The position numbers were made by a program, and so were the translations under genes. Positions 313-12,929 of a stretch of 64,000 nt of DNA are shown here, piece after piece. The notes under the pieces are model-generated. The model made no database searches. It was not told the origin of the DNA and was given only the letters and a program-made list of their open reading frames with translations. Numbering within the stretch: the stretch's first letter is position 1; each line of letters opens with the position of its first letter. Source of the DNA: a virus; the IMG/VR virus record IMGVR_UViG_3300011116_000416, positions 1-64,000 of that record. The stretch is one strand, 5' to 3'.

Positions 313-334
313 TGTCAGTGGCTACCCCTATAAT
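313..334 (+). promoter_or_regulatory. TGTCAGTGG-type promoter 1
   Basis: TGTCAGTGG 313-321, seven-base spacer, TATAAT 329-334. Reads into the gene at 361. No -35 hexamer at the normal distance. Confidence 0.8.
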
Positions 335-360
335 TAGAACATAGCAAGAAAGGCTAAAGA

Positions 361-504
361 ATGAAATTACACAAAAACCCTATGAAGCGATACACCCTAT
401 TTATCTACAACCTAAACGGACAGCAAGTTATCTCAGCAATTCACCAACTAGACATTTTTAGTTTTTTGGCAGAACACCCTGACGCTAAGGTTTATCAACG
501 CTAG
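361..504 (+). CDS. small unknown protein, 47 aa
   Basis: ATG at 361 follows an AAGAAAGG ribosome site 12-20 bases upstream, and the frame ends in TAG at 502-504. The product is short and basic at its N-terminus (KLHKNPMKRY). Its form resembles small phage proteins of the 'hypothetical early' type. No domain is recognised. It is alone in its transcription unit between two TGTCAGTGG promoters. Confidence 0.65.
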   Translation: MKLHKNPMKRYTLFIYNLNGQQVISAIHQLDIFSFLAEHPDAKVYQR

Positions 505-507
505 GCG

Positions 508-529
508 TGTCAGTGGTTCCCCTTATAAT
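508..529 (+). promoter_or_regulatory. TGTCAGTGG-type promoter 2
   Basis: TGTCAGTGG 508-516 and TATAAT 524-529. Starts 3 bases after the preceding stop codon and serves the two-gene unit at 557-810. Confidence 0.8.
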
Positions 530-556
530 TTACTTATCAAAAGAAATGGAAAATAA

Positions 557-730
557 ATGAAATTAGAAAAGAATGCAACCCTTATCCAAGCAATTCACGC
601 CCTACAAAACAAAAGTGGAATTGCAGGTAAAGAACCAACTGCATACTTGTCAGGTTTGTTGTTCGCTCACATTAGCGACAGAGATTGGCAAGAAGTCATC
701 AAGAGAATAAATGAAATGGAGAATAAATAA
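557..730 (+). CDS. small unknown protein, 57 aa
   Basis: ATG at 557 is preceded by AAGAAATGGA. Charged, probably helical protein with no recognised domain. Its TAA overlaps the next ATG by one base (TAATG), so the two genes are translationally coupled. Confidence 0.65.
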   Translation: MKLEKNATLIQAIHALQNKSGIAGKEPTAYLSGLLFAHISDRDWQEVIKRINEMENK

Positions 731-810
731 TGGAAACTTTCGAATGTGCCAGATGTGGTGCGGAAGTAGAAAACACCGCTGAACACCCTGAAATTGGTTG
801 CGACTTTTAG
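730..810 (+). CDS. 26-aa zinc-knuckle microprotein
   Basis: ATG 730-732 overlaps the previous stop. The 26 residues include CARCG near the N-terminus and a GCDF end, so three cysteines could form part of a metal site (CxxC plus a distal Cys). Too short for a family assignment. The coupling to the upstream gene and the clean promoter that follows support it as a real gene. Confidence 0.5.
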   Translation: METFECARCGAEVENTAEHPEIGCDF

Positions 811-821
811 TCGCTTCCAAA

Positions 822-843
822 TGTCAGTGGTTAGATGTAAAAT
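822..843 (+). promoter_or_regulatory. TGTCAGTGG-type promoter 3
   Basis: TGTCAGTGG 822-830; -10 element is TAAAAT, 838-843. Feeds the three coupled genes at 873-1302. Confidence 0.8.
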
Positions 844-872
844 AGTTTTATCAAAAAGAAATGGAGAATAAA

Positions 873-1034
873 TTGGAACAGTTTGAGAAAAACAGGGTTG
901 CAGATTTGGAAAAGTATTTCGCTGAATTTGGCGAAGCAATTGCAAAAGGTTGGATTAGTCCAGAAGCAATTTTTGAACACGCTTACAATTTAGGGGCGTT
1001 AGGTTGGGAAAATAAAGATAAGGGAAAAAACTAA
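873..1034 (+). CDS. small unknown protein, 53 aa, TTG start
   Basis: I chose TTG at 873 because ATGGAGAATAAA in front of it matches the ribosome-site spacing of the sister leader at 541-557. An in-frame ATG at 861 would lie inside that site and would add 4 residues. Helical, charged, no known domain. TAA overlaps the next ATG (TAATG). Confidence 0.55.
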   Translation: MEQFEKNRVADLEKYFAEFGEAIAKGWISPEAIFEHAYNLGALGWENKDKGKN

Positions 1035-1234
1035 TGGACATTAGAGAAAAATACACTCAAGAAGAATTAGAAGAAATGCACGATGAAATGCTGGATGAAA
1101 CTTATCCACCTTATAAAATTGGATACTCAGATTTCTACGCTTCACAAATTCTTGCAAACTGCGACCCAATACTTTATTCAATTTCCGTTGATGAATTTGC
1201 AGATTTCTTGCAAGAACAGGAAGATGAAGACTAA
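1034..1234 (+). CDS. acidic unknown protein, 66 aa
   Basis: Middle gene of a TAATG-coupled trio. The protein is rich in Glu and Asp (EELEEMHDEMLDE near the N-terminus, EQEDED at the end) and aromatic residues. Strong acidity in a host-takeover region is compatible with a DNA-mimic or inhibitor, but nothing in the sequence proves that. Confidence 0.65.
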   Translation: MDIREKYTQEELEEMHDEMLDETYPPYKIGYSDFYASQILANCDPILYSISVDEFADFLQEQEDED

Positions 1235-1302
1235 TGGAACCTATAACTACTTTTGGAATTGTGTTTACAGTTCTACTAATAATCTGGGCAATCGCAGAAT
1301 AA
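1234..1302 (+). CDS. 22-aa single-span membrane microprotein
   Basis: ATG 1234-1236 overlaps the previous stop (TAATG) and the frame ends with TAA 1300-1302. Almost the whole chain after residue 4 is hydrophobic (TTFGIVFTVLLIIWAIA), one transmembrane helix with no soluble domain. One of several such microproteins here (2702, 9800, 16366). Confidence 0.5.
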   Translation: MEPITTFGIVFTVLLIIWAIAE

Positions 1303-1342
1303 ATTTGTGGGGTGTGTCGCTACTTGACATGCCCCCAAATTT
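1301..1342 (+). terminator. long hairpin with ACTTGACA loop
   Basis: AAATTTGTGGGG (1301-1312) faces CCCCCAAATTT (1332-1342). The loop has CTACTTGACA. The stem begins inside the preceding stop codon and is followed by TGCCGAC at 1344. There is no long U-tract, so termination is inferred. Confidence 0.45.
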
Positions 1343-1380
1343 ATGCCGACCGCCACCAGCTCAAATTGTATTAAGTACGA

Positions 1381-1402
1381 TGTCAGTGGTTCCCCCTATA
1401 AT
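1381..1402 (+). promoter_or_regulatory. TGTCAGTGG-type promoter 4
   Basis: TGTCAGTGG 1381-1389, TATAAT 1397-1402; reads into the pair at 1427-1740. Confidence 0.8.
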
Positions 1403-1426
1403 TATTTTATCAAGAAAGGAAAAAGT

Positions 1427-1612
1427 ATGTCATCACTTATTTACGCTTCAGGTCAAGTTTTAGAAAACATTAGAAAGTCAAACAATGACCTTGCCACACT
1501 CAACCCTGTAGCATACGCATTTGGTTTGGCTTGGGGTAGGCTTACTGAAAAGCAGAGAAAAGAAATTTTAGAATACACAGAAAAAATGGCACAAGAAAGC
1601 GAGAGCAACTAA
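1427..1612 (+). CDS. small unknown protein, 61 aa
   Basis: The start is ATG 1427, after AAGAAAGGAAAAAGT and downstream of the promoter. Longer versions of the frame would run through the promoter and are rejected. Alpha-helical pattern with a LTEKQRKEI segment; no recognised domain. TAATG coupling to the next gene. Confidence 0.65.
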   Translation: MSSLIYASGQVLENIRKSNNDLATLNPVAYAFGLAWGRLTEKQRKEILEYTEKMAQESESN

Positions 1613-1740
1613 TGATAGATGACCCAAGAGAAGCACACGCAATGAGAGTCTATGAAGAATACCCAACGGAGTATGATGATGAAGACTATGAAGAAGACGA
1701 TTGGTCTTGCGTAGAGTCTGGACTCTTTGGGGACTGCTAA
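1612..1740 (+). CDS. very acidic 42-aa protein
   Basis: Coupled to the upstream gene (TAATG). The centre is an Asp/Glu/Tyr run (EYDDEDYEEDDW) and the C-terminus carries two cysteines (WSCVESGLFGDC). Such acidity suggests interaction with a basic surface or a DNA-binding protein, by inference only. Confidence 0.6.
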   Translation: MIDDPREAHAMRVYEEYPTEYDDEDYEEDDWSCVESGLFGDC

Positions 1741-1760
1741 GGCAGCCCCTTTGGGTGCCG
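1741..1760 (+). terminator. short GC hairpin after the 42-aa gene
   Basis: GGCAGCCC and GGGTGCC around a CTTT loop, immediately after the stop codon and running into TGCCGAC. No U-tract. Confidence 0.45.
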
Positions 1761-1819
1761 ACCGCCCTGGGAACAATTTAATTAAGAAAGTTTTAAGAAA
1801 ACCCTTGACAAGCTCCCAA

Positions 1820-1841
1820 TGTCAGTGGTACCATTTATAAT
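1820..1841 (+). promoter_or_regulatory. TGTCAGTGG-type promoter 5
   Basis: TGTCAGTGG 1820-1828, TATAAT 1836-1841. A TTGACA at 1805-1810 is 25 bases from the -10, too far for a standard -35. Confidence 0.8.
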
Positions 1842-1865
1842 AGAAGTATCAAGAAAGGAAAAACT

Positions 1866-2009
1866 ATGGTTTATGTATGTGTATTTTGTGAAACTCTTTA
1901 CTCAAGCGAGGCTGTAATCTGTAATGAGTGCCAAGACTATAAGGGTATGATGCCCTTAGAACTTGCTAAGGAAACTTACGACTTTATAGCAGAAAGCCAC
2001 GCTGACTAA
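1866..2009 (+). CDS. zinc-ribbon microprotein, 47 aa
   Basis: ATG 1866 follows AAGAAAGGAAAAACT. Two CxxC pairs (CVFC near residue 5 and CNEC near residue 19) are spaced like a minimal zinc ribbon, followed by a short helix. Sole gene of its unit. Probable structural zinc site; partner unknown. Confidence 0.65.
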   Translation: MVYVCVFCETLYSSEAVICNECQDYKGMMPLELAKETYDFIAESHAD

Positions 2010-2010
2010 A

Positions 2011-2032
2011 TGTCAGTGGTAGCCTGTATAAT
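2011..2032 (+). promoter_or_regulatory. TGTCAGTGG-type promoter 6
   Basis: TGTCAGTGG 2011-2019, one base after the preceding stop codon; TATAAT 2027-2032. Confidence 0.8.
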
Positions 2033-2056
2033 AAATCTATCAAACAAAGGACACTA

Positions 2057-2263
2057 ATGGAACAACTAGCACAAGAACTAACTGCCCTAATGAACGAAAT
2101 TGAGCAGGAATACAATGATACAGGTATCGCTGTGGGCTATGACCCTGAACTACCTGACGAGGAACAAGACCCTAGATTAGTTAGAATTGGTAATCTAATT
2201 ACCCTTATCTCTACCCTTGCCCCTGACCTACTAGACCCTAGACTAAAATACGCTGACGAGTAA
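2057..2263 (+). CDS. acidic unknown protein, 68 aa
   Basis: ATG 2057 after CAAAGGACACTA. N-terminal helix rich in Glu, then a DPELPDEEQDP loop and a hydrophobic helix. No domain recognised. Monocistronic; the next promoter starts 2 bases after its stop. Confidence 0.65.
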   Translation: MEQLAQELTALMNEIEQEYNDTGIAVGYDPELPDEEQDPRLVRIGNLITLISTLAPDLLDPRLKYADE

Positions 2264-2264
2264 A

Positions 2265-2286
2265 TGTCAGTGGTTAGGTCTATAAT
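2265..2286 (+). promoter_or_regulatory. TGTCAGTGG-type promoter 7
   Basis: TGTCAGTGG 2265-2273, TATAAT 2281-2286; serves the coupled trio 2317-2839. Confidence 0.8.
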
Positions 2287-2316
2287 TAGATAATCAAGAA
2301 ACGAAAAGGATAAAAA

Positions 2317-2511
2317 ATGGAAAACAAGAAATACAACTTTGGTGGATACTCATTTGGAGATAAGGGCTTGGCTGTTCTAAGCATACAAGTTCTAAATCAC
2401 ACCGAAACAGGAACAAACTACTCAACCGAAATTGCTTTAGAACTAACGCCAGATGAACGAGTAGAACTAATCAAAAAAATTATCACACTAGACGAAAAGG
2501 AAGTTCGCTAA
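2317..2511 (+). CDS. small unknown protein, 64 aa
   Basis: ATG 2317. N-terminal half alternates hydrophobic and polar residues like beta strands, and the C-terminal half is a helix (TPDERVELIKKIITLDEKEV). No family recognised. TAATG overlap with the next gene. Confidence 0.65.
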   Translation: MENKKYNFGGYSFGDKGLAVLSIQVLNHTETGTNYSTEIALELTPDERVELIKKIITLDEKEVR

Positions 2512-2702
2512 TGATGACACGCAAGGACTATGTAGAAACTGCCAACATTCTCGCAGAGAGTAGAGATGCCTTACTCTCACTAGGAGTTGATGGTGAAATA
2601 ATTTTTGAGAACCTAGTTGGAGATTTTATTGAGATGTTCCAAAATGACAATGAGAGATTTATTGTCAGTAAGTTTGCTAAGGCTTGCTGGGGTGAAAACT
2701 AA
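2511..2702 (+). CDS. small unknown protein, 63 aa
   Basis: Start ATG 2511 overlaps the upstream stop; a second ATG follows directly. Helical, mildly acidic, no motif. Coupled to the membrane microprotein downstream. Confidence 0.6.
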   Translation: MMTRKDYVETANILAESRDALLSLGVDGEIIFENLVGDFIEMFQNDNERFIVSKFAKACWGEN

Positions 2703-2839
2703 TGGACATCACAATTTTACTAATGTTGGGATACATTCCGCTAATCGCTTGGCTACTTGTTCAGGCAATACAACTTGATAAGTTTGCTAAGTTTATCAAA
2801 GAACAAAATGATGAAATCAAAAGGCTAAAACCTTTTTAG
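2702..2839 (+). CDS. 45-aa membrane microprotein with charged tail
   Basis: ATG 2702 (TAATG overlap). Residues 4-23 form one hydrophobic helix, followed by a charged, probably coiled tail (KFIKEQNDEIKRLK). This organisation resembles small membrane anchors or antiholin-like proteins, but function cannot be assigned. Confidence 0.6.
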   Translation: MDITILLMLGYIPLIAWLLVQAIQLDKFAKFIKEQNDEIKRLKPF

Positions 2840-2848
2840 TTTCACCTG

Positions 2849-2867
2849 CCACCCTTCGGGGTGGTTT
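2849..2867 (+). terminator. rho-independent terminator
   Basis: CCACCC-TTCG-GGGTGG (2849-2864) followed by TTT, 10 bases after the stop codon; GTCGGCA follows at 2870. Confidence 0.75.
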
Positions 2868-2932
2868 GGGTCGGCAGCTCTTTATAACATTTTGATTAAG
2901 TTAATTAAGAAACACCCCCAGAATGCCCTGTA

Positions 2933-2954
2933 TGTCAGTGGCGTAGTGTATAAT
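2933..2954 (+). promoter_or_regulatory. TGTCAGTGG-type promoter 8, leaderless output
   Basis: TGTCAGTGG 2933-2941, TATAAT 2949-2954. Exactly six bases separate the -10 from the ATG at 2961, so the predicted +1 is the start codon. Confidence 0.8.
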
Positions 2955-2960
2955 CTTAGT

Positions 2961-3122
2961 ATGAAAAGAAATGGCAAACATAAAGGCACTGAAAACAAGG
3001 CTTACATTATCGCTATGCGTGAAATCCGTAAGTCTAACGCTGCGACTACCCACGACAACAGACCAAACAGGCTTCGCACACGCAAGGCTGTAATCACTAA
3101 CGCTATCAAGGAGTATAACTAA
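2961..3122 (+). CDS. basic unknown protein, 53 aa
   Basis: ATG 2961 lies at the expected transcription start and has no ribosome site, so a leaderless mRNA is likely. The product is strongly basic (KRNGKHKG, RPNRLRTRKA), which suggests nucleic-acid binding, unlike the acidic neighbours. TAATG coupling to the next gene. An upstream in-frame start at 2892 would precede the promoter and is rejected. Confidence 0.6.
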   Translation: MKRNGKHKGTENKAYIIAMREIRKSNAATTHDNRPNRLRTRKAVITNAIKEYN

Positions 3123-3427
3123 TGGCGAAAAAAGAACACAAGGTAATTCTTAGAGAAATTGAGATGTTGCCTTTACAGGAACAAATCTATCAAATACTTA
3201 TTGGCAAGGGTATCCGTAGAACCTTTGGTAATAGGTTAGATGTTATGGAATTGGCTGATGAACTTATCTTTACCCTTGACTTTGTAAATGGTGGAGAACC
3301 TGAACAATTGGTTTCTCTAAATACCCTGCCAGAACTAACCAATGGTGATGACGGAGTGCCAGCGATAGACCTAATCAAGTATTTTGAGTTAGATGACTAC
3401 ATCATTGAGAGTGTCCTAACTGCCTAA
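3122..3427 (+). CDS. unknown protein, 101 aa
   Basis: Start ATG overlaps the upstream TAA. N-terminus basic (MAKKEHK), remainder acidic and helical. No domain recognised. Second gene of a two-gene unit; the next promoter begins directly after its stop codon. Confidence 0.65.
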   Translation: MAKKEHKVILREIEMLPLQEQIYQILIGKGIRRTFGNRLDVMELADELIFTLDFVNGGEPEQLVSLNTLPELTNGDDGVPAIDLIKYFELDDYIIESVLTA

Positions 3428-3449
3428 TGTCAGTGGTTCAAAGTATAAT
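3428..3449 (+). promoter_or_regulatory. TGTCAGTGG-type promoter 9
   Basis: TGTCAGTGG 3428-3436, directly after the preceding TAA; TATAAT 3444-3449. Confidence 0.8.
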
Positions 3450-3473
3450 TAGATAAACAAGAAAGGTAAAACT

Positions 3474-3596
3474 ATGGAATCATGTTTCTATTGTGGTTGC
3501 GAACTAATAGAAGGCGAACTAATTCTATGCGACAAAGACCTCATGTCTGCAGTTATTGCTAAACTATTCTATGAGATAATCGAGGAAGGCTTCTAA
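3474..3596 (+). CDS. 40-aa Cys-rich microprotein
   Basis: ATG 3474 after GAAAGGTAAAACT. N-terminal CFYCGC plus a later LCD give four cysteines, compatible with a small zinc ribbon, followed by a hydrophobic helix. TAATG overlap with the next gene. Confidence 0.6.
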   Translation: MESCFYCGCELIEGELILCDKDLMSAVIAKLFYEIIEEGF

Positions 3597-3949
3597 TGAC
3601 CAGAGAACAAATAATCAAAAAGTATAACATCAACCCTAACCAAACTTTTGACGTATTCTATGAAAATGGCGAGGTATGGTGTAGCGATGACGGTATGCTA
3701 AGTGTATTCCATTGTGGCGAAATGCGTGTTGACTATCAAGACGAAAGACTATACACAAACACGGACTTCATCAAAGTTGGTTTAGATACTGATGATAAAG
3801 TCAGTTTAGCAGACCACAACAATGAACTTTACTGGCATTTGAACCCTTGGTTTATTGTTGCCAACAAAGATGAATTAGACTATGAATACTACATTAGCGG
3901 AGACATTGTTGACGCTATCAGGTATGCCCTTGACCTTAGCAAAAGCTAG
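3596..3949 (+). CDS. acidic unknown protein, 117 aa
   Basis: ATG overlaps the upstream stop. Aromatic- and Asp-rich with probable beta structure (VFYENGEVWCSDDG). No domain recognised. The final gene of its unit; its stop is followed within 12 bases by GTCGGCA and the next promoter. Confidence 0.65.
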   Translation: MTREQIIKKYNINPNQTFDVFYENGEVWCSDDGMLSVFHCGEMRVDYQDERLYTNTDFIKVGLDTDDKVSLADHNNELYWHLNPWFIVANKDELDYEYYISGDIVDAIRYALDLSKS

Positions 3950-3965
3950 GGTTTCGGGTCGGCAA

Positions 3966-3987
3966 TGTCAGTGGTAGCAATTATAAT
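3966..3987 (+). promoter_or_regulatory. TGTCAGTGG-type promoter 10
   Basis: TGTCAGTGG 3966-3974, overlapping the end of GTCGGCA; TATAAT 3982-3987. Confidence 0.8.
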
Positions 3988-4014
3988 TAAGATACACAAA
4001 AAGAAAGGCTGAAA

Positions 4015-4305
4015 ATGGCAGTATTCAATTTCATTCACGATGACTCTCACGGTTGGTTAGAAGTAAATCTAACTGAGTTTCCAGAAGCAAGAAACTACGC
4101 AACAGGTTGGGGCTACATCAACGGAAACACTATCTATCTTGAAGAAGACCAAGAAGCAGAAAACTTTATCTATCACCTAACAACTCAGGGCGAACCTATT
4201 GAATACATTGACAAAGTGTATGACGGTCAATGGTTTGGTAGAAGTTATGCCAGAAATGTCAGGGGTATCCACTATAATCAAGACATCATTAGAGAAGGGA
4301 ACTAA
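4015..4305 (+). CDS. unknown protein, 96 aa
   Basis: ATG 4015 after AGAAAGGCTGAAA. Aromatic- and Asp/Glu-rich, probably alpha/beta, with a conserved-looking DGQWFGRSYARNVRG segment. The segment coding for the C-terminus also carries a degenerate TGTCAG promoter. Confidence 0.65.
   Translation: MAVFNFIHDDSHGWLEVNLTEFPEARNYATGWGYINGNTIYLEEDQEAENFIYHLTTQGEPIEYIDKVYDGQWFGRSYARNVRGIHYNQDIIREGN
4257..4278 (+). promoter_or_regulatory. TGTCAGTGG-type promoter 11, one mismatch, inside a gene
   Basis: TGTCAGGGG 4257-4265, seven-base spacer, TATAAT 4273-4278, within the end of the 96-aa gene and 28 bases before the next ATG. Confidence 0.65.
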
Positions 4306-4428: not shown

Positions 4429-4433
4429 AGGGT

Positions 4434-4450
4434 AGTCCCCTTCGGGGGTC
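4434..4450 (+). terminator. CCCC-TTCG-GGGG hairpin
   Basis: A four-pair stem with UUCG tetraloop at 4437-4448 that runs into GTCGGCA; no U-tract. Confidence 0.5.
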
Positions 4451-4510
4451 GGCAGCTTTATAACATCCTGGTTACGATAATTAAGAAACACCTTACGATA
4501 CCCTTGTAAA

Positions 4511-4532
4511 TGTCAGTGGTATCCTGTAAAAT
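4511..4532 (+). promoter_or_regulatory. TGTCAGTGG-type promoter 12
   Basis: TGTCAGTGG 4511-4519; -10 TAAAAT 4527-4532; serves the gene at 4565. Confidence 0.8.
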
Positions 4533-4564
4533 AGAGTTATCAAACAAAGAAAGAGAGAACCCCT

Positions 4565-4795: not shown

Positions 4796-4796
4796 A

Positions 4797-4818
4797 TGTC
4801 AGTGGTATCAACTATAAT
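4797..4818 (+). promoter_or_regulatory. TGTCAGTGG-type promoter 13
   Basis: TGTCAGTGG 4797-4805 begins one base after the preceding TAA; TATAAT 4813-4818. Confidence 0.8.
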
Positions 4819-4847
4819 AATACTAACCCCTAAGAGAAAGTAGAGTA

Positions 4848-4988
4848 ATGGAACTTGAACGCCATTTCAATCACGACATTGTTATTGCTAAGTATTCTGG
4901 TTTGGATGCTGAACCAGTAAATTATGCGGTAGAGTGCGAAACCTGCTACGAAGTAATCATAGACCAAGATGTCAGTGGTATAGAGTAA
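4848..4988 (+). CDS. small protein, 46 aa, CxxC motif
   Basis: ATG 4848. Contains ECETCYE near residue 30. The last codons read Asp-Val-Ser-Gly because the next promoter's TGTCAGTGG box is inside the coding sequence, and the stop TAA (4986-4988) is the first half of that promoter's TAAAAT. Confidence 0.6.
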   Translation: MELERHFNHDIVIAKYSGLDAEPVNYAVECETCYEVIIDQDVSGIE

Positions 4989-4991
4989 AAT
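4970..4991 (+). promoter_or_regulatory. TGTCAGTGG-type promoter 14, embedded in a gene end
   Basis: TGTCAGTGG 4970-4978 and TAAAAT 4986-4991 overlap the final seven codons of the upstream gene. Confidence 0.75.
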
Positions 4992-5014
4992 AGTAATCTA
5001 ACGAAAGGAAGCCA

Positions 5015-5400: not shown

Positions 5401-5469
5401 GCTCTACCCTGGTCGGCAGCATAACAAATTGATAACATAATTTACGAAACACCATAAATTTCCCCTAAA

Positions 5470-5491
5470 TGTCAGTGGGTATCTGTATAAT
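5470..5491 (+). promoter_or_regulatory. TGTCAGTGG-type promoter 15
   Basis: TGTCAGTGG 5470-5478, TATAAT 5486-5491; last copy before the 6-8 kb block, which uses other promoters. Confidence 0.8.
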
Positions 5492-5520
5492 TGAACTACA
5501 CCAAAAGAAAGAAGATAATT

Positions 5521-6285: not shown

Positions 6286-6314
6286 TTGACAAAACCCTGA
6301 AATCGTGGGACAAT
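6286..6314 (+). promoter_or_regulatory. sigma70-type promoter
   Basis: TTGACA 6286-6291, 17-base spacer, GACAAT 6309-6314; upstream of the gene at 6364. Confidence 0.7.
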
Positions 6315-6561: not shown

Positions 6562-6590
6562 TTTACAAATCACCCTTTATCCTGTATAAT
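6562..6590 (+). promoter_or_regulatory. sigma70-type promoter
   Basis: TTTACA 6562-6567, 17-base spacer, TATAAT 6585-6590; begins at the last base of RNA element E and serves the gene at 6625. Confidence 0.7.
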
Positions 6591-6624: not shown

Positions 6625-7068
6625 ATGGCTCGTTCATTAGCAGTAAAAGTTCCAACCGCTAGTTTGATTGTTCTCGTAGAAGACAAGATTGCTAGTATTC
6701 AGTCTGCTCTTGCTACATACCCTGCTGATGTAAAGCAGTATGAAGCAGATGTAAAGGCTCACCAAGCAAACCTAGTCAAGTCTGTAATCAAGGTTCTAAC
6801 TGATAACCCTGAGTTGATTGGCGAAAACTATGATAGCCCAATTCGTGTTTCTTATGGCTATCGTGGTGTTGATGTAAGCATAGATGCTGATGCTCTTGGC
6901 TTACCTGAGCAACCAAAAAAGCCACAGAACCCAAATGATAGACAATCGTTTGGTCGTGAGTATGCTACTCCACTAGAAATGTTGGAAAAGACACTCAAAG
7001 TTCTAAAACTAACAACTCAGGAAGAAGTAAATGCTTCTACCTATTCATCAGTAATGGACTTACTATAA
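6625..7068 (+). CDS. unknown phage protein, 147 aa
   Basis: ATG 6625 after AGAAAGAAGATAAATA. Long N-terminal helical region with Ala/Lys/Gln (about residues 15-60), a Pro/Asn-rich linker (PEQPKKPQNPND) and a C-terminal helix. No recognised domain. It lies between the 50-aa gene and the DUF932 gene, each followed by the same RNA element, so the three may act together. Confidence 0.65.
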   Translation: MARSLAVKVPTASLIVLVEDKIASIQSALATYPADVKQYEADVKAHQANLVKSVIKVLTDNPELIGENYDSPIRVSYGYRGVDVSIDADALGLPEQPKKPQNPNDRQSFGREYATPLEMLEKTLKVLKLTTQEEVNASTYSSVMDLL

Positions 7069-7385: not shown

Positions 7386-8399
7386 ATGGCTCACGAATTA
7401 GAAATAAACGAAGCAACAGGCGAAGCAACTTTTGCTAGCCTACGCCAACCTGCTTGGCACAATCTAGGAACTGTGTTTCAAGATGAAGTAAATACCGCAG
7501 AAATGCTATCCCTTGCTAAACTAGACAATTGGAATGTTCGCTTAGAAGAAGTCCCTGTCCCTGCTGGTTTTACTAGCGACAAAACTTATTCTTTTGTATC
7601 ACGAACTAATCCATTCAACAAAGACCAGACAGACATTCTGGGAATTGTTGGAGAACGCTACACACCTTTACAGAATGAAGACTTGTTTTCATTTGGCGAC
7701 AACTTGCTAGATGGTGGTGGGCGTTGGGAAACTGCTGGTTCAATCAAAGGTGGTAGAGTTGTATTTGGTTCTATTGCTTTACAGAACTCAATTACCCTAG
7801 ACCCGAATGGCATTGCTGATAAGATAGACAACTATCTACTTATCAACACATCTCACGATGGTTCTATCGCTATTCAAGCGTCAATCACACCTGTTAGAGT
7901 TGTATGTGCTAACACGCTAAACCTTGCTCTATCATCATTCAAGGGTAAAAAGGCAAGTAAGCAAACATTCAAGATTAGACACACTCAAACAGCGGAAGGC
8001 AAAATCGCAGTTGCTCGCCAAGCGTTGGGTCTTGCTAACTCTTACATTGACGAGTTTAGCGAACTTGCTAACAAACTTATTCAAACTGAGATTACTAAGG
8101 CTCAATTTGATAAGATTGTTGAACTTGCTTACCCTGCCCCTGAAAAAGACAGCAAGGGTTCATTCAAAAAGCACGACAGCAAAGTTGAACTACTAAACGA
8201 CATTTATGTTGGTCAGTATAACAACACTATTGCTGGAACTGCTTGGGGTGCTTACAATGCTCTAACAGAACGCTTGGATTGGTATAGAACTGCTCGTGGT
8301 GGCAACAGTGAAAGTATTTACGCTTCTGCTTCTGGTTTTGACCCTGTAATCAACGCTGAGAAAAATCGCCTAATGGGATTGGTTTTAGCAAACATCTAA
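7386..8399 (+). CDS. DUF932 (TIGR03299) phage/plasmid-like protein, 337 aa
   Basis: Recognised as the DUF932 family by its start (ATFASLRQPAWHNLGTVF) and by the GIVGERYTPLQNED and PVRVVCANTLNLAL segments; the length is normal for the family. DUF932 proteins occur in many phages and plasmids and are often called LGT proteins, but their biochemical role is not established. ATG 7386 follows CGAAAGGTGTCCATTT. It is the largest gene of the plus-strand arm, has its own consensus promoter and is followed seven bases after its stop by pseudoknot copy D. Confidence 0.85.
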   Translation: MAHELEINEATGEATFASLRQPAWHNLGTVFQDEVNTAEMLSLAKLDNWNVRLEEVPVPAGFTSDKTYSFVSRTNPFNKDQTDILGIVGERYTPLQNEDLFSFGDNLLDGGGRWETAGSIKGGRVVFGSIALQNSITLDPNGIADKIDNYLLINTSHDGSIAIQASITPVRVVCANTLNLALSSFKGKKASKQTFKIRHTQTAEGKIAVARQALGLANSYIDEFSELANKLIQTEITKAQFDKIVELAYPAPEKDSKGSFKKHDSKVELLNDIYVGQYNNTIAGTAWGAYNALTERLDWYRTARGGNSESIYASASGFDPVINAEKNRLMGLVLANI

Positions 8400-8545: not shown

Positions 8546-8567
8546 TGTCAGTGGTGGTCTGTATAAT
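8546..8567 (+). promoter_or_regulatory. TGTCAGTGG-type promoter 16, leaderless output
   Basis: TGTCAGTGG 8546-8554, TATAAT 8562-8567, six bases to the ATG at 8574. Confidence 0.8.
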
Positions 8568-8573
8568 GGATTT

Positions 8574-8843
8574 ATGAATGAAGATGAAGAATACTATAAA
8601 TACCCTGAAGCACACGAACTAAAATCCTACCAAATCAAGCAATTTAAGGTTTGGGGTCTTGAAGCACTTGAAAGAGAGTTTTGGGACAGGATAGAGCGTG
8701 GTATCTTGAAACGCACCCCTGAAACAATGTCCTTTATTGAAATGCTAACAGGCATTCGTGAAGAAGCGTGGATTGCTCTTGAACCTGACAATCATAAGAT
8801 ACTTTATGATGAAATGCTGGAACAAGCGGCTATGCTTTGGTAA
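8574..8843 (+). CDS. acidic helical protein, 89 aa
   Basis: ATG 8574 sits at the predicted transcription start with no ribosome site. Mixed-charge helices with many Trp and Tyr; no family recognised. The next TGTCAGTGG box starts directly after its TAA. Confidence 0.65.
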   Translation: MNEDEEYYKYPEAHELKSYQIKQFKVWGLEALEREFWDRIERGILKRTPETMSFIEMLTGIREEAWIALEPDNHKILYDEMLEQAAMLW

Positions 8844-8865
8844 TGTCAGTGGTATCCCCTATAAT
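8844..8865 (+). promoter_or_regulatory. TGTCAGTGG-type promoter 17
   Basis: TGTCAGTGG 8844-8852, TATAAT 8860-8865; heads the six-gene overlapping unit 8894-9859. Confidence 0.8.
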
Positions 8866-8893
8866 AATAATCTAAGAGAAAGAGAAAACCCTT

Positions 8894-9085
8894 ATGGCAA
8901 ATCTATACAATGTAAAAGTAATCGTAGAACTAGAATACGAAGTTGAGTGTGAAACCGAAGATGAAGCAGAAGAACTTGGCTGGCATTGGGAAGAATACAC
9001 ACAATACTCGTCTGTCTATTCCATAGATGTAGAACATCTAAAAGAGATAGAAGACTTTGATGAAGAAGATGAAGATAATGACTGA
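8894..9085 (+). CDS. very acidic protein, 63 aa
   Basis: ATG 8894 after AGAGAAAGAGAAAACCCTT. Two strand-like stretches and an Asp/Glu C-terminus (EDFDEEDEDND). Related in style to the products at 9395 and 11593, which also start with an M-x-K/N-x-Y strand pattern, so these may be paralogues. Ends in an eight-base overlap with the next gene. Confidence 0.65.
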   Translation: MANLYNVKVIVELEYEVECETEDEAEELGWHWEEYTQYSSVYSIDVEHLKEIEDFDEEDEDND

Positions 9086-9254
9086 TTGTGAATGCGACAA
9101 GGTTGATTGTCCTAAACACGAAGGCAGTTATGACTGTCATTCATTCTGCGACATTTGCGAAGGTAATCAGGGTTATTGCCCTACCCACGATGAATGGGAA
9201 GCAGAACAAGCACAAATCTATTTAGACCAACACAGACAGGAAGATAATGAGTGA
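9078..9254 (+). CDS. Cys/His-rich zinc protein, 58 aa
   Basis: Start ATG 9078 is inside ATGACTGA, overlapping the upstream stop by eight bases. The N-terminal 36 residues contain eight Cys and several His (CECDKVDCPKH, CHSFCDICEGNQGYCPTH), enough for two zinc sites, then an acidic helix. No named family. Confidence 0.65.
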   Translation: MTDCECDKVDCPKHEGSYDCHSFCDICEGNQGYCPTHDEWEAEQAQIYLDQHRQEDNE

Positions 9255-9402
9255 ACTAAAAAGCCTAATGGCTGAACGCAAAGCAATAGAAGCAGACCTA
9301 GACAAGTTTGAGGGTATGCTAAACGATTGGACTTATGACCTTATCGTAGGTCGTATGGAAATATTAGACAGTATGATTGCGATTGAGAGTTATAATGCCT
9401 AA
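9247..9402 (+). CDS. small helical protein, 51 aa
   Basis: ATG 9247 within ATGAGTGA (eight-base overlap). Almost entirely helical, heptad-like (LMAERKAIEADLDKFEGML), so a short coiled coil is likely. Function unknown. Confidence 0.6.
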   Translation: MSELKSLMAERKAIEADLDKFEGMLNDWTYDLIVGRMEILDSMIAIESYNA

Positions 9403-9631
9403 AATTTATAGAGCACAAATCATCTGGGACTTTGAAGTGGATGATGATGGATACGTTGAAAGCGAACGTGAGTATCTGGACTATGAACTTGAAGATGGTG
9501 AAACTCTGGAACCACGCACCGAAGAACAAATCATCAACTATGCTCGTAGTGAACTAGTAGAAGCACTATACAATGGTGTCAAATACAATGACCTATACAA
9601 TATGGTTGATGTGGTGGTAGTAAATGAGTGA
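9395..9631 (+). CDS. acidic protein, 78 aa
   Basis: ATG 9395 within ATGCCTAA (eight-base overlap), preferred over 9377, which lacks coupling geometry. N-terminal strands (KIYRAQIIWDFEVDDDGYV) followed by acidic helix. Similar in design to the 63-aa and 58-aa proteins at 8894 and 11593. Confidence 0.6.
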   Translation: MPKIYRAQIIWDFEVDDDGYVESEREYLDYELEDGETLEPRTEEQIINYARSELVEALYNGVKYNDLYNMVDVVVVNE

Positions 9632-9803
9632 AATGTCAGATAAAGAACTAGTCTTGTCTATGATTGACAACTTTCAAAAAATCAAGGGCATTGACAATTT
9701 GCCAACATCACAAGTATTAGAACTAATTAGAAAAAGATTGAATGCAACACCAGAAGAAATGGCGTTCATCCAACATGCACGAGAAGTTCTAAAGGAAGTA
9801 TGA
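9624..9803 (+). CDS. small helical protein, 59 aa
   Basis: ATG 9624 within ATGAGTGA (eight-base overlap). All-helical composition without a recognised motif. Its TGA overlaps the ATG of the next microprotein (ATGA). Confidence 0.6.
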   Translation: MSEMSDKELVLSMIDNFQKIKGIDNLPTSQVLELIRKRLNATPEEMAFIQHAREVLKEV

Positions 9804-9859
9804 CGTGGACGGTTACCTTTCTTAGCGTTATGATTCTTATATGGCTTATTCGACAATAA
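9800..9859 (+). CDS. 19-aa membrane microprotein
   Basis: ATG 9800 overlaps the previous stop by four bases, and a strong terminator follows its TAA, so it is the true last gene of the unit. The sequence is one hydrophobic helix (VTFLSVMILIWLI) with an Arg-Gln end. Confidence 0.5.
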   Translation: MTWTVTFLSVMILIWLIRQ

Positions 9860-9872
9860 GGGATAATAGGGG

Positions 9873-9910
9873 ACCAGGGTGGTTGGAGCTTTCTAACTGC
9901 CCTGGTTTTT
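9873..9910 (+). terminator. strong rho-independent terminator
   Basis: ACCAGGG (9873-9879) pairs with CCCTGGT (9900-9906), followed by TTTT and then TGCCGAC. Confidence 0.85.
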
Positions 9911-9985
9911 GCCGACCACTTTACATAATAATTTTATTAGAGATAAAAAGTTTATTACGAACATGTAACAAAATCCCCTAAACTA

Positions 9986-10014
9986 TTGACTTTACGATGA
10001 TTAGACGGTATCCT
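9986..10014 (+). promoter_or_regulatory. sigma70-type promoter
   Basis: TTGACT 9986-9991, 17-base spacer, TATCCT 10009-10014, with TTACGATGA in the spacer; reads into the 182-aa gene. Confidence 0.6.
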
Positions 10015-10045
10015 TGAAATATAAACCTAGAGAAAGAGAAACCCT

Positions 10046-10594
10046 ATGCATGTAATGCAATACCTGCTCACTGAAGTTGAGCGTATGGATGAACAAACTG
10101 TTGAAGATATTGAGCAAGAAGCCATTAGTCATGTCAATGCTTGGCTAGACCTAGAAGCAGATGGTAATGGCTTTGTTGGTGGCTGGTCTGATGGTTGCAC
10201 TGTTGGCGGTAGATGGGCTGATGTTCCTATCCTTATTTATTCTGACGAGAATGCTTGTGAGTTCTTAGAAGCATTAGATATGCTAGACCTAAAGCAGCGA
10301 AGTCAGTTCAACGAGTATTTTGCTGAGTTTGATTTTCCTACTATCAACAGTCTTATGGTAAAGTATTCTAATGGTGAAGATGTTGAATACCGTGAAATTA
10401 TTGAAGCCAATGTATCTAGTTTGTCAGGAGCATTGAAGATTATGCGTGGCTACTGGAACTGGGATAGTGGCTATTACGATACCATTGACTATACCATCAA
10501 GACTGAGCCTTTACGAGCAAGGCTAAAAAAAGCTATTGACAACAATGATACTACTATGATACAATGTTTAGTGCCAGTAGATTTCCACTTCTAA
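10046..10594 (+). CDS. acidic unknown protein, 182 aa
   Basis: ATG 10046 after AGAGAAAGAGAAACCCT. Largest product of the 10-12 kb unit. It has a Gly/Trp-rich stretch (GFVGGWSDGCTVGGRWADVP) that could be a small beta sheet, followed by helices. No domain recognised. Its end contains a promoter for the genes that follow. Confidence 0.65.
   Translation: MHVMQYLLTEVERMDEQTVEDIEQEAISHVNAWLDLEADGNGFVGGWSDGCTVGGRWADVPILIYSDENACEFLEALDMLDLKQRSQFNEYFAEFDFPTINSLMVKYSNGEDVEYREIIEANVSSLSGALKIMRGYWNWDSGYYDTIDYTIKTEPLRARLKKAIDNNDTTMIQCLVPVDFHF
10536..10565 (+). promoter_or_regulatory. internal promoter
   Basis: TTGACA 10536-10541, 18-base spacer, TACAAT 10560-10565 with TGA in front (extended -10); inside the end of the 182-aa gene. 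Confidence 0.6.
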
Positions 10595-10608
10595 GAGAAA
10601 GACCCCAA

Positions 10609-10755
10609 ATGAAAATACTAGCAAAACCTGAAATGCTTGTAGATGAACTCTATAATGTTATGGATATGCTTGAAGATGTTCAAGACCCTAAAGCAGGGGA
10701 TATCTATCATTATATAAATCAACTTCTATTAGCAGTGGTGGTAGATGATGACTGA
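10609..10755 (+). CDS. small unknown protein, 48 aa
   Basis: ATG 10609 after AAGAGAAAGACCCCAA; longer frames start upstream inside the previous gene. Helical, ends VVVDDD. Eight-base overlap with the next gene (ATGACTGA). Confidence 0.6.
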   Translation: MKILAKPEMLVDELYNVMDMLEDVQDPKAGDIYHYINQLLLAVVVDDD

Positions 10756-11110
10756 ACTAACCTACGAAGAATGGTCTGAGAAATACAAGCCTATCAAAAA
10801 TCATTTAGTTACTGATGACACTACATCTTTTGAGACTTATGGCGATGAAGTGTTGTTTGTTTGTGAGCAACCTAACAATACCGTTTGGACTGAGATGGAT
10901 GGTGACGATGGTGTGTACATCGTTACTGGCTATCATTTGGCTAATAGGATTGCTTATTATGTTACCGAAGTACCGTGGACAGATGACGAGTATGTCACGG
11001 TATGCAAGTTTGTCGTATGTGACTGCTATGATGTAGATAACGAAGATGAAGAACCTGACCAAGACTGCGACCTATGTTTTGGTGATGGAACCTACACAGA
11101 TTGGAAATAA
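10748..11110 (+). CDS. acidic protein with C-terminal Cys motif, 120 aa
   Basis: ATG 10748 gives the eight-base overlap; an ATG three bases earlier is also possible. The C-terminal third holds VCDCYD and CDLCFGDGTYTDW, a CxxCxGxG element as in DnaJ-type zinc centres, in an otherwise acidic, aromatic chain. A zinc-binding role is likely, the partner unknown. Confidence 0.65.
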   Translation: MTELTYEEWSEKYKPIKNHLVTDDTTSFETYGDEVLFVCEQPNNTVWTEMDGDDGVYIVTGYHLANRIAYYVTEVPWTDDEYVTVCKFVVCDCYDVDNEDEEPDQDCDLCFGDGTYTDWK

Positions 11111-11111
11111 C

Positions 11112-11279
11112 ATGGATGAACTAATTGCTTGGCTTGAAGAGCGACTAAAAGAAAAAGACGCAGAGTTATCTGGTTTAGATAGTGATATAGATGAAGAAGA
11201 TTATTGCTATGCAAAGGGATATATGTATGCTTATCTTAATACACTAATAAAGATAAAGGAAATTACCAATGACAGATAA
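11112..11279 (+). CDS. acidic helical protein, 55 aa
   Basis: ATG 11112, two bases after the previous stop. N-terminal coiled-coil-like helix (MDELIAWLEERLKEKDAEL), acidic centre and a helical end. Overlaps the next gene by 11 bases. Confidence 0.6.
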   Translation: MDELIAWLEERLKEKDAELSGLDSDIDEEDYCYAKGYMYAYLNTLIKIKEITNDR

Positions 11280-11415
11280 ATTTAATAATAATCCTGACTA
11301 CGACCAGGGATGGCAAGAAGCCATTGACCATGTTATTGACATTATTAACGAAATGCAGTATACTTATGATTGGCACAACCCTACACTAGATGAACTGGAG
11401 CAACGAATAGTATGA
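11269..11415 (+). CDS. small unknown protein, 48 aa
   Basis: ATG 11269 after AAAGGAAATTACCA, inside the end of the previous gene. Asp/Asn-rich start, then a helix with GWQEAIDHVIDIIN. Overlaps the next gene by four bases (ATGA). Confidence 0.55.
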   Translation: MTDKFNNNPDYDQGWQEAIDHVIDIINEMQYTYDWHNPTLDELEQRIV

Positions 11416-11600
11416 GAAAATATGTAAAACACCTAAACAACAACGAACTGCTAGAGCGTATGGCAGAAGACCTTGTGTCAATGCACGAGCAAACTGGTAT
11501 TGACTTGGGGTATTGGGAGACAGCCCTAGAAGTTGTAGAACGTTTCTACAATGTATTTGTTGATGTAACAGTTGGTGGAAAGAAGATAGACAATGCCTAA
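11412..11600 (+). CDS. small helical protein, 62 aa
   Basis: ATG 11412 overlaps the previous TGA. Helical with a basic N-terminus; no domain recognised. Eight-base overlap downstream (ATGCCTAA). Confidence 0.6.
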   Translation: MRKYVKHLNNNELLERMAEDLVSMHEQTGIDLGYWETALEVVERFYNVFVDVTVGGKKIDNA

Positions 11601-11769
11601 ATTTAAAATCTATGCCCTGCGTAAAATCTGGTATGAAGTACCAATTGAAGCAGAAGACGAAGCAGATGCTTTTGATAAGATTGATGACTGGATTTCAGAT
11701 GACTTTGAAGATTTTGAAGTATCTGGTGAGTGGGAATTTGAAGCGGTAGGAGTAGAAGATAATGCGTAA
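11593..11769 (+). CDS. very acidic protein, 58 aa
   Basis: ATG 11593 within ATGCCTAA. Strand-like start (KFKIYALRKIWYEVPIEAED) and an Asp/Glu-rich middle. Probable paralogue of the products at 8894 and 9395. Eight-base overlap with the next gene. Confidence 0.6.
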   Translation: MPKFKIYALRKIWYEVPIEAEDEADAFDKIDDWISDDFEDFEVSGEWEFEAVGVEDNA

Positions 11770-11959
11770 GATGTTTGAAAGTCTAGTTTTAGATAAAGAA
11801 AACTTCGAGTCATACTTTGACCCTGAAGATGGTATTGACATTACTGACGAGTTGTGGGATACTATTATTGACGATGTTGATGGTACTGTTGCTAACTACC
11901 TTGACGAACTGTTAAATAATATTGTTTTAGATATCAAGGAAGGTATTTATAATGCTTAA
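11762..11959 (+). CDS. acidic protein, 65 aa
   Basis: ATG 11762 within ATGCGTAA. Asp-rich with hydrophobic helices (DITDELWDTIIDDVDGTVAN). No domain. Eight-base overlap with the last gene of the unit. Confidence 0.6.
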   Translation: MRKMFESLVLDKENFESYFDPEDGIDITDELWDTIIDDVDGTVANYLDELLNNIVLDIKEGIYNA

Positions 11960-12368
11960 AGATTGGGACCTAAACCTATGGTTCAGAGACTTAGGACGAG
12001 ATGAAGATGGCTTGGACATATTGGACGATGTTATAACTATAAACCCTGCTATCTATATCAACGAACAACCTGATGACTTTTACGGTGCAGTTAATAAAGT
12101 TTATACTGGTATTCTTTATATATGTACCCCAGAAGAAACGGCTAAAATCCGTGCATTCAGGAGCGAACAGGAATACGGTGATGACTGGTTTGACTTTAGA
12201 CAGGACCTATTTGCCCTTGAGATTAGCCAGGGTATTCAGCAGTTCCTAGAAGATTTAGGAGACCCCTATAGCATCAATACAGATGACTATGGAGACCTAT
12301 ATCACATTGATAGTATTAGTAAACTTGATGGGTTGAGAACACTCCCTGTCAATGGTCAGAGCAGTTAG
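11952..12368 (+). CDS. acidic unknown protein, 138 aa
   Basis: ATG 11952 within ATGCTTAA. Rich in Asp, Trp and Tyr with mixed helix/strand character. No family recognised. Last gene of an eight-gene overlapping unit, ending 22 bases before a terminator. Confidence 0.65.
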   Translation: MLKDWDLNLWFRDLGRDEDGLDILDDVITINPAIYINEQPDDFYGAVNKVYTGILYICTPEETAKIRAFRSEQEYGDDWFDFRQDLFALEISQGIQQFLEDLGDPYSINTDDYGDLYHIDSISKLDGLRTLPVNGQSS

Positions 12369-12390
12369 GGGTTTCTGTGTCTGACTATCT

Positions 12391-12435
12391 GGGGAAGCAT
12401 GGGTAAATTGCTACTTGTGCTTCCCCTACATTTTT
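12391..12435 (+). terminator. rho-independent terminator
   Basis: GGGGAAGCA (12391-12399) pairs with TGCTTCCCC (12418-12426), then TACATTTTT. It partly overlaps the -35 of the next promoter. Confidence 0.75.
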
Positions 12436-12443
12436 GGTATAAT
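12415..12443 (+). promoter_or_regulatory. promoter overlapping the terminator
   Basis: TTGTGC 12415-12420, 17-base spacer, TATAAT 12438-12443; leads to ATG 12462. Confidence 0.55.
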
Positions 12444-12461
12444 TGGACTATTGGAGTATAA

Positions 12462-12662
12462 ATGAGAAGACACATAATAACCAGAGAAGAAAGAGAAGTA
12501 AGTAAATTAGCAAACATTCTAGCAGATTTGAGATTAGACCTAGAACTGATGGGGTATTATCTGGGAATGAATGTCAGTAGCGTAGTGTATAATAGACTAC
12601 AAATCATCAGTGAAACAGCAAAACAAACAAAGGAAAAAGACTATGAGCCAAACGACAGATAA
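12462..12662 (+). CDS. basic helical protein, 66 aa
   Basis: ATG 12462 after TTGGAGTATAA. Basic N-terminus (RRHIITREEREVSK), helical. Its middle carries the next promoter, and it overlaps the start of the following gene by 20 bases. Function unknown. Confidence 0.6.
   Translation: MRRHIITREEREVSKLANILADLRLDLELMGYYLGMNVSSVVYNRLQIISETAKQTKEKDYEPNDR
12572..12593 (+). promoter_or_regulatory. TGTCAGTGG-type promoter 18, one mismatch, inside a gene
   Basis: TGTCAGTAG 12572-12580, spacer CGTAGTG as in promoter 8, TATAAT 12588-12593. Confidence 0.7.
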
Positions 12663-12906
12663 CGACAAGATTGCTATTCTGGCTGACCTATGGATAAACT
12701 ACCGCAATGACCAGAACTTTGAAGACTTCATTGCTTACAACGATTTAGGTTTGCCACTAGCCTATCTGCTAAACGAAGATGTCGTAGCACCAACACCACG
12801 AGCCCTAATGTTCGTTAGTGAAACATTTGACCTCTTGCTTGCTGGTCTAGAACTAAAAGACACAGGCTTCACAAACTTAGACGAGATGCTAGAAGCAGAA
12901 GAGTAA
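12643..12906 (+). CDS. acidic helical protein, 87 aa
   Basis: ATG 12643 after AAAGGAAAAAGACT. Helical, acidic and Leu-rich with a PTPRALMFVSETFDLLLAGL segment. No family recognised. TAA is followed immediately by ATGTCAGTGG. Confidence 0.65.
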   Translation: MSQTTDNDKIAILADLWINYRNDQNFEDFIAYNDLGLPLAYLLNEDVVAPTPRALMFVSETFDLLLAGLELKDTGFTNLDEMLEAEE

Positions 12907-12907
12907 A

Positions 12908-12929
12908 TGTCAGTGGTAGGTGATAGTGT
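12908..12929 (+). promoter_or_regulatory. TGTCAGTGG box 19 with weak -10
   Basis: Exact TGTCAGTGG at 12908-12916, but the hexamer at the usual place (12924-12929) is TAGTGT, so activity is uncertain. Confidence 0.4.

What the first reader, a model, noticed from the sequence alone, without database searches (positions are those of the whole stretch)
313..12929. A family of 19 phage promoters: TGTCAGTGG, fixed 7-base spacer, -10, no -35
Seventeen exact and two one-mismatch copies lie between 0.3 and 12.9 kb, all in plus orientation, and I found none in the minus-strand arm. In all of them exactly seven bases separate the box from the -10 position (15 TATAAT, 3 TAAAAT, 1 degenerate). The box occupies about -28 to -20, overlapping neither a normal -35 nor an extended -10, and no TTGACA is at the right place. 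The first spacer base is usually T while the rest varies, so conservation is in the box. Downstream leaders share an A-rich AAGAAAGG ribosome site. This resembles T4 middle promoters (MotA box) in principle, but the sequence differs. It suggests an undescribed activator or sigma-appropriation system that turns on many micro-operons at once. WhiB (25905) or the MerR-like protein (44596) are possible partners, by inference.
Basis: partly seen in the sequence, partly recalled or inferred. Interest (0 to 1): 0.92.

Follow-up and report, generated by a model that had tools for sequence, protein, structure and literature searches.

The report
Freshwater phage promoters with unknown activator
A large group of uncultured, mostly freshwater, viruses of actinobacteria switches on many small early genes from a shared promoter in which a virus-specific DNA tag (TGTCAG) at a fixed distance replaces one of the usual bacterial promoter signals, which points to a dedicated viral activator that nobody has yet identified.

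Summary
There are 17 exact and 2 one-mismatch TGTCAGTGG boxes at 313-12916, all on the + strand, all 7 bases before a -10 (15 TATAAT, 3 TAAAAT, 1 TAGTGT). The same promoter fills the early arm of an environmental phage clade related to Streptomyces Stanwilliamsviridae. The clade-wide anatomy is WWW-TGTCRG-WSS-N7-TANNNT, with a Y(-1)A(+1) start. Where the mRNA lacks a leader, ATG sits exactly at the predicted +1. The window's lineage has no -35 and no extended -10. Sister lineages often have TGN and sometimes a weak -35. Five cultured Streptomyces relatives have none, and 85,000 bacterial and archaeal genomes hold only chance hits to a strict form. Most likely these are host sigma-A promoters in which a phage-encoded activator bound at -31..-20 replaces -35 recognition. 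This works like T4 MotA middle promoters, but the box differs, lies closer to the -10, and MotA, AsiA and phage sigma factors were not detected. The reader protein is unidentified; WhiB and the MerR-like protein are conserved, but box-free relatives have them too. No expression data exist.

The parts
313..341 (+). box promoter 1: box 313-321, -10 TATAAT 329-334, predicted +1 341
   Evidence: ATG 361, 20-nt leader
508..536 (+). box promoter 2, TATAAT
   Evidence: ATG 557
822..850 (+). box promoter 3, TAAAAT
1381..1409 (+). box promoter 4, TATAAT
   Evidence: ATG 1427
1820..1848 (+). box promoter 5, TATAAT
   Evidence: ATG 1866
2011..2039 (+). box promoter 6, TATAAT
   Evidence: ATG 2057
2265..2293 (+). 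box promoter 7, TATAAT
   Evidence: ATG 2317
2933..2961 (+). box promoter 8, TATAAT; ATG exactly at predicted +1 (leaderless)
3428..3456 (+). box promoter 9, TATAAT
   Evidence: ATG 3474
3966..3994 (+). box promoter 10, TATAAT
   Evidence: ATG 4015
4257..4285 (+). box promoter 11, one-mismatch box TGTCAGGGG, TATAAT
   Evidence: score 25
4511..4539 (+). box promoter 12, TAAAAT
   Evidence: ATG 4565
4797..4825 (+). box promoter 13, TATAAT
   Evidence: ATG 4848
4970..4998 (+). box promoter 14, TAAAAT
   Evidence: ATG 5015
5470..5498 (+). box promoter 15, TATAAT
   Evidence: ATG 5521
8546..8574 (+). box promoter 16, TATAAT; ATG exactly at predicted +1 (leaderless)
8844..8872 (+). box promoter 17, TATAAT
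   Evidence: ATG 8894
12572..12600 (+). box promoter 18, one-mismatch box TGTCAGTAG, TATAAT
   Evidence: score 23
12908..12936 (+). box promoter 19, degenerate -10 TAGTGT; weakest copy
   Evidence: score 15
25905..26195 (-). WhiB-like protein; possible sigma-A-binding helper, not shown
   Evidence: Pfam PF02467 2.3e-11; present in all lineages and in box-free BillNye
44596..45126 (-). phrog_9440 protein with MerR-like winged HTH; candidate reader, not shown and not favoured
33698..33895 (-). small stand-alone HTH (weakly sigma region-4-like); candidate, not shown

Best explanation
These are real promoters for the host's own sigma-A RNA polymerase. Sigma region 2 reads the -10 (TANNNT, with an extended -10 in sister lineages). 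A sequence-specific, asymmetric activator encoded by the phage binds WWW-TGTCRG-WSS at -31..-20 and replaces the -35 contact, probably by touching sigma region 4 or the beta flap. One protein would thereby turn on roughly 6-24 short, often single-gene, early-arm operons together. This is functionally like T4 sigma appropriation (MotA) but independently evolved. Shown: the element, its fixed register, start-site and leader anatomy, restriction to one phage clade, absence from sampled relatives, only chance-level hits in cellular genomes, and no detected phage sigma.
For: Specificity in IMG/VR: N7 at least 120 stretches, many with several copies; N8 40, N6 45 and core mutant TGTGAG 36, all singletons in completed scans. 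All 302 boxes in the fetched loci have TANNNT at N7, including 115 not selected for TAWAAT. In 51 records the reversed-pattern control is 0 and one strand is used in nearly all. In 80 loci chosen by a protein rather than by DNA, 56 carry 2-18 copies, and gap 10 occurs 431 times against at most 69 for any other gap. In 349 non-redundant sites: a Y(-1)A(+1) start not selected for (0.79/0.68), no TTGACA, and phased A-tracts at -63, -52, -41 and -30. ATG piles up at +1 (17) and +2 (8), all open frames. The box stands in for the -35 in the window's lineage while the same genome has perfect TTGACA-N17-TATAAT elsewhere. Clade-restricted: 116 of 120 N7 loci belong to it; five cultured Stanwilliamsviridae have 0. 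Cellular genomes: 25 strict hits against about 30 expected by chance. No Sigma70_r2.
Against: No transcript data exist. No protein is both universal in the box phages, absent from box-free relatives and clearly DNA-binding. The best phage-specific early gene (6625 family) also occurs in box-free phages and folds as a long helix. A host factor with few, poorly matching host targets is not excluded, because only one strict pattern was scanned in host genomes. In lineages B-E some sites also have a partial -35, so the box may modulate rather than replace recognition there.
Confidence: 0.62

Rival explanations
1. The box is read by a host-encoded factor (or host-specific RNAP accessory protein) that this phage clade exploits, so the promoters are immediate-early and need no phage protein.
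For: The box tracks the environmental phages rather than phage phylogeny: Streptomyces phage BillNye is closer to lineage B than the window is, yet lacks it. No phage-specific reader gene was found.
Against: Strict pattern at chance level in GTDB genomes (25 hits, about 30 expected). Nearly all box-bearing viral contigs belong to one clade; a common host factor should also serve unrelated phages of the same host. The early-arm gene module is itself shared across lineages A-E, so module exchange explains the distribution equally well.
Confidence: 0.17
2. The box is an operator for a phage repressor (an early-gene shut-off factor, or an immunity repressor as with cluster A stoperators), and the promoters are basally recognised by host RNAP.
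For: A fixed position inside the promoter also suits repression. Some B-E sites have partial -35 plus extended -10 and could be recognised without help. Many unidirectional copies recall stoperators (own knowledge).
Against: In the window's lineage nothing is left for sigma-A except the -10. Lineages with a looser box gain an extended -10, as expected of a recognition element. Every exact box in the window has its own -10. No integrase or resolvase was detected in nine records, and no HTH_3 repressor above cut-off.
Confidence: 0.13
3. A phage-encoded sigma factor or RNA polymerase reads box and -10 together.
For: One fixed two-part element; the small HTH at 33698 is weakly sigma region-4-like.
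Against: No Sigma70_r2 in nine records with a working control. No single-subunit RNAP was found, although that search's control was uninformative. The -10 has the ordinary sigma-A pattern, with variable 3rd-5th bases.
Confidence: 0.06
4. Chance repetition or copying of one promoter cassette without function.
For: Promoters within a genome are alike (13-copy repeat family).
Against: Only box, -10, start site and ribosome-site region are conserved while the spacer varies; the register is exact in hundreds of diverged sites; controls are at background.
Confidence: 0.02

Closest known systems
T4 middle promoters (MotA box + AsiA, sigma appropriation)
   Same: A phage element replaces the -35 next to a good host -10. 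Asymmetric box starting with three A/T then TG. About half of T4 middle promoters also have TGN (PMC2988021, PMC6755090). Many small operons from one element.
   Different: Core TGTCRG not TGCTT. The box ends 7 bases before the -10 (T4: 12 +/- 1), about 3 bp closer at its upstream edge. No MotA or AsiA homologue detected. Actinobacterial phages, element on the small-gene early arm.
Cluster A mycobacteriophage stoperators (from own knowledge)
   Same: Many copies of a short asymmetric site, one orientation relative to transcription; contains TGTCA.
   Different: Stoperators are repressor sites not generally tied to a -10. Here every copy has a -10 at one fixed distance, and no integrase was detected.
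MerR-type spacer-binding activators
   Same: Act from between the -35 and -10 positions; the phage encodes a MerR-like winged HTH (weak).
   Different: MerR operators are palindromes within long spacers (own knowledge); this box is asymmetric and most copies have no -35.
Actinobacterial WhiA/WhiB co-activation
   Same: Phage and host both have WhiB-type partners. The box complement contains TGACA, near the WhiA GACAC motif.
   Different: WhiA sites show no consistent orientation (PMC3781837); this element is strictly oriented and spaced and the fifth base does not match.
Stanwilliamsviridae (Streptomyces phages BillNye, Annadreamy, Paradiddles, Muntaha, Moab)
   Same: Nearest cultured relatives: DnaE 54-57% identical; head, tail and replication gene order shared between BillNye and the box phages.
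   Different: No box promoters at all; BillNye has canonical TTGACA promoters on both arms (33 hits, control 1).

Membership tests
T4-type sigma-appropriation (MotA-dependent middle promoters) | Phage box replaces -35 upstream of a sigma-70 -10 | tested here: met
   Lineage A sites lack a -35 and keep the -10
T4-type sigma-appropriation (MotA-dependent middle promoters) | MotA box sequence WWWTGCTTtA, 12 +/- 1 bp from the -10 | tested here: not met
   WWWTGTCRGWSS, 7 bp from the -10; consensus from PMC2988021
T4-type sigma-appropriation (MotA-dependent middle promoters) | MotA and AsiA encoded by the phage | tested here: inconclusive
   No match to PF09158, PF09114 or PF09010 in nine records, but the control genomes contain no T4, so sensitivity is untested
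T4-type sigma-appropriation (MotA-dependent middle promoters) | Transcription depends on the phage activator and co-activator | not testable with these tools
   No expression data
Phage-encoded sigma factor regulon | Phage encodes a sigma with region 2 | tested here: not met
   PF04542 absent in nine records, control rings in 11 genomes; some records may be fragments
Stoperator/immunity repressor system | Temperate phage with integrase and repressor | tested here: not met
   No PF00589 or PF00239 match, no HTH_3 above cut-off; some records may be fragments
Stoperator/immunity repressor system | Sites not tied to a fixed promoter register | tested here: not met
   All exact boxes in the window have a -10 at N7
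MerR-regulated promoters | Palindromic operator in a 19-20-bp spacer between -35 and -10 | tested here: not met
   Asymmetric box; -35 absent in lineage A, partial at spacer 17-18 in B-E
WhiA/WhiB-regulated promoters | GACAC motif | tested here: not met
   Complement reads CTGACA(T/A), 4 of 5 bases (motif from PMC3781837)
Stanwilliamsviridae (window phage as a relative) | Shared core genes and order | tested here: inconclusive
   Shared DnaE, helicase, UvsX, terminase and tail genes at about 25-60% identity; no formal phylogeny done

The most novel reading that the evidence does not exclude
A second, independently evolved kind of sigma appropriation: an actinobacteriophage activator of a new family, possibly a winged-HTH protein acting with phage WhiB on sigma-A region 4, reads WWWTGTCRGWSS at -31..-20 and has replaced the -35 throughout the early arm of a widespread environmental phage clade.
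Probability: 0.45. Interest if true: 0.85.

Novelty: new variant of a known kind. Interest (0 to 1): 0.72.

Why it matters
T4 middle promoters are the textbook case of a phage box standing in for the -35. A clade-wide equivalent in actinobacteriophages would show that this strategy evolved again on a different RNA polymerase (with its own WhiB proteins). It would give a ready DNA bait for finding a new transcription factor. In practice, the element marks early genes, start sites and leaderless mRNAs in uncultured phages with high specificity, so it can be used to find and annotate these phages in metagenomes.

Tried and rejected
(1) The 6625-7068 family was the best early-arm gene in all box lineages and absent from BillNye. 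Rejected as reader: 24 of 80 loci carrying it have no box, AlphaFold gives a long helix, and no PDB match reaches E 0.001. (2) WhiB 25905: in every lineage but equally similar in BillNye. (3) MerR-like 44596: weak MerR-fold matches (best E 0.13, model pLDDT 71); its recognition helix differs between lineages A/E and B while the box does not, and BillNye has it. (4) Small HTH 33698: same objection. (5) 22411 is thioredoxin, 24417 Hsp20, 27361 an FmdB zinc ribbon, 28982 membrane-like; the 2511 family has an HeH-like hint only. (6) Replacement box in the box-free loci: none found. (7) TGG versus extended -10 trade-off: significant over all sites (p 9e-8) but confounded by lineage; within B-E only a trend (p 0.21). 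(9) No held paper describes the element: TGTCAGTGG hits are led by unrelated papers, and searches for phage or actinophage promoter motifs found no description of it.
Full report
OBSERVATION. TGTCAGTGG occurs exactly 17 times between 313 and 12916, all on the + strand, and twice with one mismatch and a -10 (4257, 12572); no exact copy lies on the minus strand. All 19 are followed after exactly seven bases by a -10-like hexamer, 15 TATAAT, 3 TAAAAT and 1 TAGTGT. The window is part of an 85.6-kb virus record, and the remaining 21.6 kb hold no further exact copy.

IS IT MORE THAN CHANCE? The same pattern with N8 gave 40, N6 gave 45 and a one-base core mutant (TGTGAG) gave 36, all single matches in completed scans. 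The chance level is therefore about 40. In the fetched loci all 302 boxes have TANNNT at N7, including 115 that were not selected for TAWAAT. In 51 records scanned whole, the reversed pattern never occurs and the copies lie on one strand in nearly all records.

AN UNBIASED TEST. I fetched 80 loci with a protein (the 6625-7068 family) instead of the DNA pattern. In 56 of them there are 2-18 copies. The distance from WTGTCAG to TANNNT is 10 in 431 cases and at most 69 for any other distance. Some of the others are overlapping TA...T readings of the same promoters.

WHO HAS IT. 116 of the 120 N7 loci encode several proteins of the same phage clade; the N8 control loci do not. The clade has several lineages: A (window, G042, G025), B (about 115 kb: G043, G050, G049), C (G037), D (G046) and E (G044, G048), with 6-24 copies each in the sequence read. 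Nearest cultured relatives are Streptomyces phages of the family Stanwilliamsviridae (DnaE 54-57% identical). Five of these, scanned whole with TGTCAG-N10-TANAAT, have none. BillNye has canonical TTGACA promoters on both arms (33 against 1 in the control). In 84,980 bacterial and archaeal genomes a strict form of the element gave 25 hits, against about 30 expected by chance (2 x 257 Gb / 4^17). The only convincing one is a 5-kb contig in a Saccharibacteria bin that is itself a piece of such a phage. The element is therefore viral, and restricted to this clade as far as tested.

ANATOMY. From 349 non-redundant sites, numbering the -10 as -12..-7: A-tracts in 11-bp phase at about -63, -52, -41 and -30; three A/T positions at -31..-29; TGTC(A/G)G at -28..-23; then T/A, G/C, G/C at -22..-20 (TGG, ACC, TGC, TCC); an extended -10 TG at -15/-14; TAtAaT; and a pyrimidine-A start at -1/+1. 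The start was not selected for. A sharp pile of ATG codons at +1 (17 sites) and +2 (8 sites), all opening reading frames, independently places the start. In the window this predicts leaderless mRNAs at 2961 and 8574. Most other window promoters have 17-26-nt leaders with an AAGAAAGG-type ribosome site. Degenerate W-S-S and W-W-W flanks around a fixed core suggest major-groove reading of TGTCRG with minor-groove contacts on both sides; this is inference.

TWO VERSIONS. In lineage A the box is long (TGG in 43 of 50), with no -35 signal at any spacing and TGN in only 16%. In B-E the 3' part is loose and TGN is present in 58-86%; a few sites add a partial -35. The same window genome carries perfect TTGACA-N17-TATAAT promoters elsewhere (13154, 15315, 28684), so its host RNAP does use a -35. 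This pattern is what one expects if the box contributes to recognition. The statistical trade-off between TGG and TGN is strong overall but confounded by lineage.

MECHANISM. Shown: promoter anatomy, start, register, clade restriction. No sigma region 2 was found in nine records. The single-subunit RNAP search also found nothing, but its control was uninformative. No integrase or resolvase was detected. Inferred: a phage activator binds the box and holds host sigma-A RNAP at promoters that lack a -35, as MotA does in T4. In T4 the box (WWWTGCTTtA) is 12 +/- 1 bp from the -10, replaces the -35, and about half the promoters have TGN (PMC2988021, PMC6755090). Here the box differs in sequence and sits about 3 bp closer to the -10, and no MotA or AsiA homologue was detected (the controls do not prove sensitivity). 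So it works like T4 middle promoters, but it is not filed as a member.

THE READER PROTEIN. I compared gene content of lineages A-E and BillNye. DNA-binding candidates shared across the lineages (WhiB 25905, winged HTH 44596, small HTH 33698) are also in BillNye, and the HTH recognition helices differ between A/E and B although the box core does not. Genes specific to the box phages (6625 family, DUF932, a small SH3-like protein at about 6364, the 2511 family) are not convincing DNA-binding proteins, and the 6625/DUF932 pair also occurs in box-free phages.

LITERATURE. Searches of held open-access papers found no description of this element. The freshwater actinophage paper PMC6802176 does not mention promoters. 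The held library is incomplete.

VERDICT. A real, clade-wide and so far apparently undescribed phage promoter class. It is a new variant of a known kind (phage box in place of the -35).

Noticed in passing
window 2961, 8574, 12937: Start codons fall exactly at, or one base after, the predicted +1 of three box promoters, so these mRNAs are probably leaderless; the same pile-up is seen in 25 of 349 non-redundant sites of the clade.
   Followed up: yes
window 6625-7068 and 7386-8399; L264 5929-8004: A conserved gene pair (a 140-aa long-helix protein and a DUF932 protein) is shared by the box phages and by an otherwise different, box-free phage group; function unknown.
   Followed up: partly
L189 (Saccharibacteria MAG contig CAIMCP010000002.1): A 5-kb contig binned as Candidatus Saccharibacteria carries a genuine box promoter and early proteins of this phage clade; probably a mis-binned phage contig.
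   Followed up: partly
window 2880-2916, 4456-4492, 5417-5453: A 37-nt repeat (CTTTATAACATTTTGATTAAGTTAATTAAGAAACACC) precedes three of the micro-operons; A/T-rich, with a shared GTCGGCAGC just upstream; unexplained.
   Followed up: no
G050 record (L205-L210): The 8-mer TATTAATA occurs 60 times (both strands) in this 117-kb relative, more than any other 8-mer; not examined.
   Followed up: no
L184, L185 (Leptospiraceae KatS3mg129): Three strict box-N7-TATAAT matches in one MAG, two of them in a local duplication; probably a coincidental repeat.
   Followed up: no
window 6562-6590 and 6286-6314: Ordinary sigma-A-like promoters (TTTACA-17-TATAAT; TTGACA-17-GACAAT) precede the conserved non-box early genes at about 6364 and 6625; these could be immediate-early.
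   Followed up: partly
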